DNA of 64,000 nucleotides from Chitinophaga pinensis. Its GTDB lineage: Bacteria > Bacteroidota > Bacteroidia > UBA4408. The notes below the pieces were generated by a model. It was not told the origin of the DNA. It was given only the letters and a program-made list of their open reading frames with translations, and searched no databases. The first letter of the stretch is position 1, and each line of letters starts with the position of its first letter. Location: assembly GCA_945861665.1 (NCBI GenBank), contig CAMAVS010000009.1, forward strand, positions 1-64,000, written 5' to 3'. The position numbers were made by a program, and so were the translations under genes. This document shows positions 36,752 through 40,486 of this stretch, piece after piece.

Positions 36752-36841
<90 letters not shown>

Positions 36842-36905
36842 GTTAAAAGATTAGATTAAATTTAGTTCATTATTTATTGATTATTGTAGCAATCATTTGC
36901 TAATT

Positions 36906-36980
36906 CGGGATGTAGCGTAGTCCGGTCATCGCGCCTGGTTTGGGACCAGGAGGTCGCAAGTTCGAATCTTGCCATCCCGA
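36906..36980 (+). tRNA. tRNA-Pro(TGG)
   Basis: Acceptor CGGGATG pairs with CATCCCG. The anticodon stem CCTGG/CCAGG encloses TTTGGGA, giving TGG for proline. The T loop is GTTCGAATC. CCA is not encoded. Confidence 0.97.
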
Positions 36981-37033
36981 CTTTTTTCTCCTATGCAATT
37001 TGCATTATTGAATGTATTTTTTCGTTTCTTATT

Positions 37034-37107
37034 GGTTCCGTAGCTCAGCTGGATAGAGCAACTGCCTTCTAAGCAGTAGGCCATTGGTTCGAATCCAATC
37101 GGAATCA
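37034..37107 (+). tRNA. tRNA-Arg(TCT), likely island insertion point
   Basis: Acceptor GGTTCCG pairs with CGGAATC (one G-T pair). The anticodon stem ACTGC/GCAGT encloses CTTCTAA, giving TCT for AGA/AGG arginine codons. CCA is not encoded. Accessory genes and gene fragments begin right after its 3' end. Confidence 0.96.
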
Positions 37108-37152
37108 CTTACTACCAGAGGGTTTTAACGAAATCAAAAAGCCCCAAAAAAT

Positions 37153-37174: not shown

Positions 37175-37199
37175 ATTTTTTTGTCTTATCCCGAATCTT

Positions 37200-37331
37200 T
37201 TAGTTTTTCGCAACAGAATTTTTTGCCTTTTCCTCCTCCTCTTTTGAATTTAAATACAGCACATAAACAACCACACCAGTAACCAAAATAATTCCTAAGA
37301 TTGGTAACAATAAATCGGAGGAAGGGCTATT
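37200..37331 (-). pseudogene. Clipped small membrane protein gene
   Basis: On the minus strand the frame runs from an upstream TGA (37332-37334) to TAA (37200-37202), and encodes a single membrane helix (LLLPILGIILVTGVVVYVLY) with an acidic/basic tail (NSKEEEEKAKN). There is no start codon before the helix. It loses homologous context exactly where the viperin remnant begins on the other strand, so both were probably cut by the same deletion. Confidence 0.45.
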
Positions 37332-37976
37332 TCAGGAAAAACAGCTCTTCTACTCGATTACTATAAATCTCTTGTCGACCGTATTAAACAATATGGTTAT
37401 GGTCTAAAAATAAATACAGTGGTCAGCAGCAAAAACTACAGTGAGGATATGTCAGAGTTTATTCGCTATGCTAAGCCCAAACGATGGAAACTCTTCTAAG
37501 TACTAACTATAACAGGACAAAATGATAAAAACATTGAAGAATTCAAAATTTCAGATGAACAGTTTCAAACCTTTTTAAAAAATCACAACAACTTGGAAAA
37601 CATAACTGATATAATACCAGAATCAAATAGCTAAATGAAAGGCTCTTATGCAATGGTTGACCCAGCAGGCAGATTTTATGATAACGCAAAAGGTAAACAT
37701 AATTATAGCAGACCCATATTAGAAATTGGAGCTCGTCTTGCCATTCAACAAGTAAACTATGACTTTTCAAAATTTGTTGATAGAGGTGGTATTTATCAAT
37801 GGCAAAAAAATAAAACAAAAAATTACAAAAGAATAACTCTTTCAGGAGAAGTTGCATCTGGAAAAAGTTCGGTTGGAAAAGTATTGGCCGAACAACTGAA
37901 TTTCTCTTTTGTTTCTATAGGAAATAAAACAAGGTCGTATGCTAGCTCACAAAATTTAAGTATAGTTGAATTTTAA
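37326..37976 (+). pseudogene. Prokaryotic viperin (pVip) remnant continuing in frame into a nucleotide kinase
   Basis: One frame from 37326 to 37976 holds the C-terminal half of a viperin-like radical SAM protein. KINTVVSSKNYSEDMSEFI and KPKRWKLF match the viperin KINSVI...EDM and VRWKVF region. They are followed by ISDEQFQTFLKNH, PESN, MKGSYAMVDPAGRF, ILEIGA and RGGIYQW, the latter matching RGGKYIW near the viperin end. Two in-frame TAA codons (37497-37499, in place of the Gln after WKLF; 37632-37634, before MKGSY) and loss of the N-terminal CxxxCxxC half make it inactive. The frame runs on into RITLSGEVASGKSSVGK, a P-loop of the cytidylate kinase type, cut short after about 45 residues. Viperins make antiviral ddh-nucleotides and prokaryotic ones are often encoded beside nucleotide kinases. 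A restart at 37635 is unlikely to be functional. Confidence 0.85.
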
Positions 37977-38156
37977 AGAAATATTATCTGAAAGATTGCC
38001 ACATTCAAATAAATCATTTTCCTTTCAATAATCCATAGATTAGTTAGTTAAGTTTGCTAAACAATCAAAGATGAATTAAACTCCAATCCGAAAGGTTTAA
38101 TGCAAATTAAAGTAGCCGAATCTTTTAATATTTAAAATTTATAATTTCCTTTTTTG

Positions 38157-38171: not shown

Positions 38172-38621
38172 ATGACCGCCCTTAAATTACATAGTGGAAA
38201 AGAATTAGATATTTATTCTTCATCAACCGATACAGAGTTAAAACTACCAATGATGCCAACAGGCATCAGCGCAGGGTTTCCATCGCCTGCTATGGATTTT
38301 ATAGATTTAAGTATTGACTTAAACAAACATTTAGTAAAGCATCCATCAAGCACTTTTTATGGCAGAGTAAACGGAAACTCCATGAAAGACTTAGGCATAC
38401 ACGATAATGATTTGTTGGTTATTGATAGAAGTCTTGAACCTCAAAACGGTAAAATTGCAGTGTGCAGTATAGATGGAGATTTTACATTAAAAAAAATTCA
38501 GGTAGAAAAAGATTGTGTGATGCTGATGCCTGCAAATGAAAAATACAAACCCATAAAAGTTACTGCCGATAATGAACTTATCATTTGGGGCATTGTAACC
38601 CATGTTATCAAATCGTTTTAA
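38172..38621 (+). CDS. umuD: UmuD-like S24 self-cleaving peptidase
   Basis: A 149-residue LexA/UmuD-type protein that cleaves itself when RecA filaments form; the trimmed form then works with UmuC in error-prone synthesis. The cleavage site is Ala34-Gly35 (ISAGFPSPA). The catalytic Ser70 lies in NGNSM and Lys94 in NGKIAV. There is no DNA-binding domain, which favours UmuD over LexA. It is the first gene of a tight three-gene SOS operon. Confidence 0.93.
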   Translation: MTALKLHSGKELDIYSSSTDTELKLPMMPTGISAGFPSPAMDFIDLSIDLNKHLVKHPSSTFYGRVNGNSMKDLGIHDNDLLVIDRSLEPQNGKIAVCSIDGDFTLKKIQVEKDCVMLMPANEKYKPIKVTADNELIIWGIVTHVIKSF

Positions 38622-38624
38622 AAA

Positions 38625-39884
38625 ATGTTTGCCCTTATTGATTGTAATAATTTTTACGCTTCCTGCGAAAGGGCTTTCAATCCAAAGCTTATGGGCAAGC
38701 CCATTGTGGTATTATCAAACAATGATGGTTGCGTAATTGCCCGAAGCAATGAAGCCAAAGCATTGGGAATACCTATGGGCGCAGTAGCATTTGAATACGA
38801 AAATTTATTTGTAGATAATGGAGTGTTTGTGTTCTCAGCCAACTTTGCTTTGTATGGAGATATGAGCCAACGAGTAATGAGCATACTTGCTGATTACAGC
38901 CCCGAAATGGAGATATACAGTATTGATGAAGCATTTTTAAAATTAGAAGGATTTGAGAATTTTGATTTGCAAAAGCATGGAGAAAAAATGCGTAAACAAA
39001 TTTTAAAATGGACTGGAATACCCACAAGCGTTGGCATTGCACCTACCAAAGCATTGGCTAAAGTTGCCAACCGAATAGCAAAAAAATATACAGACAAAAC
39101 AGGTGGAGTATATATTATTGATAGCGAAGAAAAAAGAATAAAAGCCCTCAAATGGCTTCCTGTTGAAGATGTGTGGGGGATAGGCAGACAACATAGCAAA
39201 CGATTAAAAGCCATAAATGTAAACACTGCTTACGATTTTACTTTGCTCAACGATGACTTGGTGCGTAAGCAAATGGCTGTGGTGGGGCTTCGCCTCAAGC
39301 ACGATTTGCAAGGCATACCAACTCTCGACTTGGATGAAATACCTATTAAAAAAAATATTGCTACCACTCGTTCGTTCGAGAAAAACTATACGGAGTTAAG
39401 CGATTTGCAGGAACGTGTTTCAACCTTTGCTGTTTCTTGTGCAGAAAAATTGCGGAAACAACAATCGAGTTGCAACTCGTTTATGCTTTTTGTGCATACT
39501 AACGGAAATCGAAAATATTTGCCACAATACAGTCGCAACATTGTGGTTAAACTTCCTTTTGCTACCAACTCAAGCATTGAGTTATCAAAGTTTGCTTTGC
39601 AGGCATTGAATAAAATATTTCGTAAAGGTTATCATTACAAAAAAGCTGGAATCATTGTCATGGATTTTATTCATGAAGATAAAGCGCAGCTCACACTTTT
39701 TGAAAACAGCCATGCAAAGCACAAGCAATTAATGAAAGTGCTTGATAAAATAAATAATGCTTTTGGTCAACAGAAAATAAAATTGGCTTCGCAAGATTTA
39801 AAACGAGTTTGGAAAATGAAACAGGAAAAACTTTCACCAAGATATACCACCAAGCTAAGTGATATAATTTCAATTAATGCGTAA
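38625..39884 (+). CDS. umuC: Y-family DNA polymerase V subunit UmuC
   Basis: A 419-residue translesion polymerase. Its catalytic site starts at [17 protein letters not shown]. The second acidic motif is YSIDEAFL, and the helix-hairpin-helix region is [18 protein letters not shown] and [11 protein letters not shown]. The little finger follows, then a C-terminal UmuC-type tail. It starts 3 bases after umuD and overlaps the SRAP gene by one base. Such umuDC pairs are common on mobile DNA. Confidence 0.96.
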
Positions 39885-40486
39885 TGTGTTTTCATTCCAA
39901 GCAAAGCAAATCGGCACAGGAACTTGAAAATAGATTTCAAGCAAAGTTTGATGCGAATGTAAATTACATCCCAACTATTTACAATGGTTTTACATTTCCA
40001 AAAACTCCAATCATAACAAATAAGGAAACAAATAAAATACAATTGTTCAATTGGGGGTTAATTCCTTCTTGGGCTAAAGACACTACCATTAGAGCCAATA
40101 CACTCAATGCAAGGAATGAAACCATAAATGAAAAACCAAGTTTTAGAAATTCAGTTAAAAACAGATGTATGATTTTAGCTGATGGATTTTATGAATGGCA
40201 ATGGCTAGATGATAAAGGAAAAAAGAAACAAAAATATTTAATTACAAAACCCAATCAAGAACCATTTTCCTTTGCAGGGCTTTGGAATGAATGGGTAGAT
40301 AAAGCAACAGGAGAAATAATTCCAACCTACACTATACTCACCACAGCAGCCAACGAAATGATGAGTGAGATACACAATACCAAAAAAAGAATGCCTGTAA
40401 TTTTAAAACAAGAAGAAGAACAGGATTGGCTGAATGGCAATATTAACAATACTTCTGAAGTGGAGTTGATTGCAGAAAGAACGTAA
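39884..40486 (+). CDS. SOS response-associated peptidase (SRAP/YedK)
   Basis: A 200-residue SRAP domain protein, slightly short for the family. The catalytic Cys2 (MCFHS) forms a thiazolidine link with abasic sites in single-stranded DNA and so shields them from breakage. Other family marks are LFNWGLIPSWAKD, NARNETINEKPSFR, the GFYEWQW strand with the active-site Glu, and the His in the IHNTKKRMPVIL segment. Its ATG overlaps the umuC stop, so it is coupled to the polymerase genes: one protects abasic sites, the other copies past lesions. Confidence 0.94.
   Translation: MCFHSKQSKSAQELENRFQAKFDANVNYIPTIYNGFTFPKTPIITNKETNKIQLFNWGLIPSWAKDTTIRANTLNARNETINEKPSFRNSVKNRCMILADGFYEWQWLDDKGKKKQKYLITKPNQEPFSFAGLWNEWVDKATGEIIPTYTILTTAANEMMSEIHNTKKRMPVILKQEEEQDWLNGNINNTSEVELIAERT

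What the first reader, a model, noticed from the sequence alone, without database searches (positions are those of the whole stretch)
37326..37976. Degraded prokaryotic viperin, in frame with a nucleotide kinase
The C-terminal half of a pVip is recognisable (KINTVV...EDM, KPKRWKLF, MKGSYAMVDPAGRF, RGGIYQW). It is truncated at its 5' end and has two in-frame TAA codons, yet stays in one frame into a GEVASGKSSVGK kinase P-loop. Vertebrate viperin is encoded beside CMPK2, and prokaryotic viperins often sit by nucleotide kinases; here the two seem to be one polypeptide. It records a past antiviral gene in this hotspot.
Basis: partly seen in the sequence, partly recalled or inferred. Interest (0 to 1): 0.78.

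Follow-up and report, generated by a model that had tools for sequence, protein, structure and literature searches.

The report
Dead bacterial viperin fused to kinase
The window holds the broken remains of a bacterial antiviral gene, a viperin that was truly one protein with a nucleotide kinase; intact copies exist in related bacteria, so this is a decayed member of a known kind, with the two parts in the reverse order of the only curated model found.

Summary
Window 37320-37973 (+), read through two TAA codons, matches prokaryotic viperin (NCBIfam NF038283, 2e-46) and PADLOC's viperin-kinase fusion (1e-81). The same frame continues into a (d)CMP-kinase-like P-loop segment. The gene is dead: it lacks the first 123 residues, including the radical-SAM cysteines, has two internal TAA codons, and keeps about 49 of 170 kinase residues. 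The fusion is not a product of decay. A 461-aa intact orthologue, one open frame, lies in a genome of the same family (68% identity), and nine more Bacteroidota loci carry the same viperin-then-kinase fusion. Differences from these relatives sit mostly at third codon positions, in both domains, so the loss is recent. Viperin-kinase fusions are already in PADLOC (2023), but that model has the kinase first. Both orders exist in Bacteroidota, and trees reject a single fused clade. The "hotspot" is not shown: the adjoining tRNA trio is conserved and its neighbours vary, but on both sides. In passing: 27 of 80 related viperin genes sit just behind a LytTR response regulator, most with 21-bp-spaced direct repeats between, and one viperin is fused to a TauD-type oxygenase. 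Those leads are newer than the finding.

The parts
37320..37811 (+). viperin remnant, corresponding to residues 124 to about 287 of the intact orthologue; the N-terminal 123 residues with the CxxxCxxC cluster motif are missing
37497..37499 (+). in-frame TAA, first internal stop
37632..37634 (+). in-frame TAA, second internal stop
37812..37823 (+). short linker between the domains, in the same frame, corresponding to the linker of intact fusions
37824..37973 (+). remnant of (d)CMP-kinase-like domain with P-loop GEVASGKSS, about 49 of 170 residues, closed by a TAA at 37974-37976
37974..38015 (+). further decayed kinase tail, weakly recognisable across more stops; nothing beyond it
36752..37108 (+). 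tRNA-Ser(GCT), tRNA-Pro(TGG), tRNA-Arg(TCT) trio; tRNA-Arg ends 211 bp before the remnant
37203..37316 (-). short minus-strand frame (38 aa, hydrophobic) that runs into the left edge of the viperin remnant; no intact relative found
38172..40486 (+). intact neighbours: Peptidase_S24 (UmuD-like), IMS polymerase (UmuC-like), SRAP; not part of the viperin system

Best explanation
This is a recently inactivated pVip-kinase gene. The intact protein was a two-domain enzyme of about 460 residues. An N-terminal radical-SAM viperin would convert a nucleoside triphosphate, probably CTP or UTP, into its 3'-deoxy-3',4'-didehydro form, a chain terminator that blocks phage RNA synthesis. A C-terminal CMPK-like kinase would phosphorylate the nucleoside monophosphate and so feed the triphosphate substrate to the viperin. 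In this genome the gene lost its 5' part, most of the kinase, and its frame, and makes no such enzyme now. Shown here: homology, fusion in intact relatives, domain folds, the lesions, and the third-position bias. Inferred from the families: the chemistry, the substrate, and the antiphage role.
For: Viperin, pVip-kinase and VakA models. Intact orthologue P0001, 461 aa, one open frame, with residues 4-279 on NF038283 at 1e-95 (cut-off met) and 294-456 on the archaeal-type CMP kinase model at 2.7e-21 (below that model's equivalog cut-off). Ten viperin-then-kinase fusions among 80 genome loci. Radical-SAM cysteines C13, C17 and C20 are invariant in 20 relatives. AlphaFold model of P0001: mean pLDDT 89.9; residues 1-288 match mouse viperin with CTP (6q2p, Z 37.1, rmsd 1.7) and 289-461 match kinases, including a CMP-bound cytidylate kinase (4die, Z 16.2). 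Codon-position differences from intact fusions are third-position biased in the viperin part (49/31/103 against L039) and in the kinase part (15/8/23). Literature: about 15% of bacterial viperins lie next to a CMPK2-like kinase gene (PMC11249213).
Against: The kinase remnant alone is below curated cut-offs. The closest viperin domains (L048-L050) have no kinase. No assay was possible; substrate choice is not tested.
Confidence: 0.9

Rival explanations
1. Two separate genes that appear fused only because the stop between them was lost during decay.
For: Split viperin-then-kinase operons with overlapping or abutting genes exist, for example L078, L087, L095.
Against: The orthologue in the same family and nine further loci are single open frames with a matching linker. 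The remnant keeps frame across the junction with 67% identity, and its kinase groups with the fused ones, though weakly and on 50 columns only.
Confidence: 0.05
2. The 113-aa frame 37635-37976 is still a working small protein (viperin C-terminus plus P-loop).
For: It has an ATG start and is open for 113 codons.
Against: It lacks the radical-SAM core and most of the kinase, and no relative of that short form was met among the loci examined; it is simply what is left between two of the stops.
Confidence: 0.03
3. The stops are sequencing or assembly errors and the gene is intact.
For: Only one assembly was seen; reads are not available.
Against: The lesions are of several kinds: missing 5' part, two internal stops, and a 3' tail with more stops and no recognisable end. 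Flanking genes are intact.
Confidence: 0.02

Closest known systems
PADLOC PDLC02905 pVip-kinase (viperin-kinase fusion, PADLOC-DB 2.0.0, 2023)
   Same: Same two domains in one polypeptide; read-through remnant 1.3e-81, intact orthologue 3e-198.
   Different: The model's order is kinase (about 3-168) then viperin (about 180-468): L058 aligns in one piece 1-473. The family found here is viperin then kinase and aligns in two swapped pieces.
Prokaryotic viperins with separate VakA-type kinase gene (PDLC02904 + PDLC02911)
   Same: Homologous viperin and kinase; most such pairs seen here also have viperin first.
   Different: Two genes rather than one.
Vertebrate viperin (RSAD2) beside CMPK2
   Same: Same pairing of viperin with a pyrimidine-nucleotide kinase; mouse viperin is a close structural match.
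   Different: Two genes in vertebrates; [quoted passage not shown]

Membership tests
prokaryotic viperin (NF038283) | curated model score at or above 180 bits | tested here: not met
   The remnant scores 158 bits because its N-terminal part is gone; the intact orthologue scores 320 bits.
prokaryotic viperin (NF038283) | CxxxCxxC radical-SAM cluster motif | tested here: not met
   Missing in the remnant, which starts at residue 124; invariant in intact relatives as C13, C17, C20.
prokaryotic viperin (NF038283) | ddh-nucleotide synthesis and antiphage activity | not testable with these tools
   Needs an assay; would apply to the intact relatives only.
pVip-kinase fusion (PDLC02905) | both domains in one reading frame in intact copies | tested here: met
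   P0001 and nine other loci.
pVip-kinase fusion (PDLC02905) | kinase-first domain order of the curated model | tested here: not met
   Order is viperin-first in the remnant and its fused relatives.
cytidylate-kinase-like domain | P-loop and whole kinase fold | tested here: inconclusive
   P-loop GEVASGKSS present in the remnant; about 120 kinase residues are missing. The intact orthologue passes Cytidylate_kin2 (3e-16, 60 bits, cut-off 28) and folds as a kinase.

The most novel reading that the evidence does not exclude
Bacteroidota viperins form a modular, signal-controlled antiviral family. A viperin and a CMPK-like kinase were fused at least twice in opposite orders, and many of these genes are switched on by a dedicated LytS/LytTR two-component system that binds 21-bp-spaced direct repeats just upstream. 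One branch replaces the kinase with a TauD-type oxygenase, which might modify the nucleotide further.
Probability: 0.45. Interest if true: 0.62.

Novelty: new member of a known kind. Interest (0 to 1): 0.36.

Why it matters
The remnant shows that an antiviral nucleotide-making enzyme in one protein existed in this lineage and was lost recently, a small example of fast turnover of defence genes. Fusion in both orders is evolutionary evidence that viperin and its kinase work as one pathway, as RSAD2 and CMPK2 do in vertebrates. The LytTR association, if real, would make a question testable that, as far as I know, is open for most bacterial viperins: what signal turns them on.

Tried and rejected
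A genome-contig scan with the remnant alone found nothing; an alignment of intact relatives was needed. Phage and plasmid collections hold no viperin-kinase fusion covering 80% of P0001; viral contigs gave two close viperins without kinase. The UmuC-like neighbour is not next to viperin in the sister genome, so the two are not a unit. The ABC-transporter gene to the left has no match in seven family genomes at the limit used. The tRNA-Arg 3' end has no second copy in the window; an 18-bp imperfect repeat at 37191 and 38116 flanks the remnant but is weak. No orthologue of the LytTR regulator is left in this genome, only a 29% paralogue. My first regular expression for the upstream repeats was mis-specified and found nothing; the corrected one was written after looking at the alignment, so its counts are descriptive. 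The Bernheim 2021 and Shomar 2024 papers are not held, so I could not check whether they describe viperin-first fusions or two-component neighbours.

Full report
What is there. On the plus strand, 212 bp after a tRNA-Arg gene, one frame from 37320 to 37973 carries viperin sequence and then a kinase P-loop, interrupted by TAA at 37497 and 37632 and closed by TAA at 37974. Read through with X at the stops, it matches prokaryotic viperin (NF038283, 2e-46), vertebrate-type viperin (TIGR04278, 5.5e-32) and, best of all, PADLOC's pVip-kinase fusion (1.3e-81), with VakA kinase at 2.6e-9. It is the only such sequence in this 2.49-Mb genome.

Intact relatives. Of 60 related genomes, one of the same family (G004, the public record CAUJCU010000010.1) holds an orthologue at 68% identity: 461 residues, one frame, no stop. 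The remnant corresponds to its residues 124-340, across the domain junction. A scan of 84,980 genomes gave 80 viperin loci. I sorted them by mechanical search of stop-to-stop frames with the two domains of P0001: 10 viperin-kinase fusions, 7 kinase-viperin fusions, 9 split pairs with viperin first, 1 split pair with kinase first, and 53 genome loci without a detected kinase; the 55 in the output include two viral contigs. The sample is biased towards the query, so these are not frequencies. Other relatives do have split genes, and the nearest viperin domains (L048-L050) have no kinase; in L048 the small gene that follows the kinase in the orthologue follows the viperin directly.

How dead, how recently. 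The remnant lacks the radical-SAM cysteines and most of the kinase. Differences from intact relatives are concentrated at third codon positions, as between two working genes, both in the viperin part (49/31/103 against L039) and in the kinase part (15/8/23). So the two-domain protein was under selection for most of the divergence. Synonymous sites are saturated in most pairs, so no date can be given.

How it worked. The AlphaFold model of P0001 has mean pLDDT 89.9. Residues 1-288 superpose on mouse viperin with CTP (Z 37.1, rmsd 1.7) and 291-461 on nucleotide kinases, including CMP-bound cytidylate kinase (Z 16.2, rmsd 2.7). pTM is 0.66, and I draw nothing from the relative placement of the domains. 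The likely scheme is that the kinase helps build the triphosphate and the viperin turns it into a ddh-nucleotide that terminates phage transcripts. This rests on the families, not on anything tested here.

Two orders of fusion. PADLOC's fusion model is kinase-first: L058 matches it in one piece, while the viperin-first proteins match in two swapped pieces. In a tree of the kinases the kinase-first and viperin-first groups lie on opposite sides of a branch with 100/98 support, and holding all fusions together is rejected (AU p 1e-5 for the kinase, 0.017 for the viperin; the grouping was chosen after seeing the architectures). At least two fusion events is the simplest reading; the viperin tree leaves room for more.

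Context. The tRNA-Ser/Pro/Arg trio is conserved in G004, G005 and G006 with different genes around it, on both sides. A variable spot is possible; a defence hotspot is not shown. The genes to the right are an intact SOS-type set (Peptidase_S24, IMS polymerase, SRAP).

Beyond the finding. In 27 of 80 genome loci a LytTR response regulator ends 87 to 155 bp before the viperin start, often behind a LytS-like histidine kinase. In 22 of these 27 gaps there are two or more copies of a YYTYRTTNCT-like site; 17 pairs are exactly 21 bp apart, the two-turn spacing usual for LytTR sites (from general knowledge). There are 72 sites against 3.6 expected from the rest of the loci and a maximum of 26 in 500 shuffles; T-runs inflate the 72, the loci are related, and the pattern was chosen after viewing the sequences. 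A search of the held papers for viperin with two-component regulators found none, which is weak evidence because the main viperin papers are not held. L052 fuses viperin to a TauD-family oxygenase (9e-21), and L013 has a homologous oxygenase as a separate gene downstream.

Noticed in passing
L039-L042, L046-L049, L052, L054, L055, L061, L064, L071, L078, L079, L081, L083, L084, L086-L088, L105, L114 and others; 87-155 bp upstream of viperin: A LytTR response regulator directly upstream of viperin in 27 of 80 loci, often with a LytS-like histidine kinase, and direct repeats about 21 bp apart between regulator and viperin.
   Followed up: partly
L052:4001-5473; L013:2751-3458: Viperin fused at its C-terminus to a TauD-type 2-oxoglutarate oxygenase domain; a homologous oxygenase as a separate gene downstream of viperin in L013, both followed by a GRDP-like gene.
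   Followed up: partly
L056, L058, L060, L062, L063, L066, L080: Kinase-first viperin fusions in Flavobacteriaceae and one Saprospiraceae MAG, opposite in order to the window's gene.
   Followed up: yes
L002:2530-2829, L003:2525-2812, L048:4879-5181: A small protein of 95-100 residues without a firm family match follows viperin or viperin-kinase; in L048 it follows viperin directly although the kinase domain is absent.
   Followed up: partly
window 37203-37316 (-): Short hydrophobic minus-strand frame that meets the left end of the viperin remnant, possibly a second gene cut at the same deletion junction; no relative found.
   Followed up: partly
window 38172-40486: UmuD-like, UmuC-like and SRAP genes in a row, an SOS-type set; in the sister genome G004 the UmuC-like gene lies on another contig than the viperin.
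   Followed up: no
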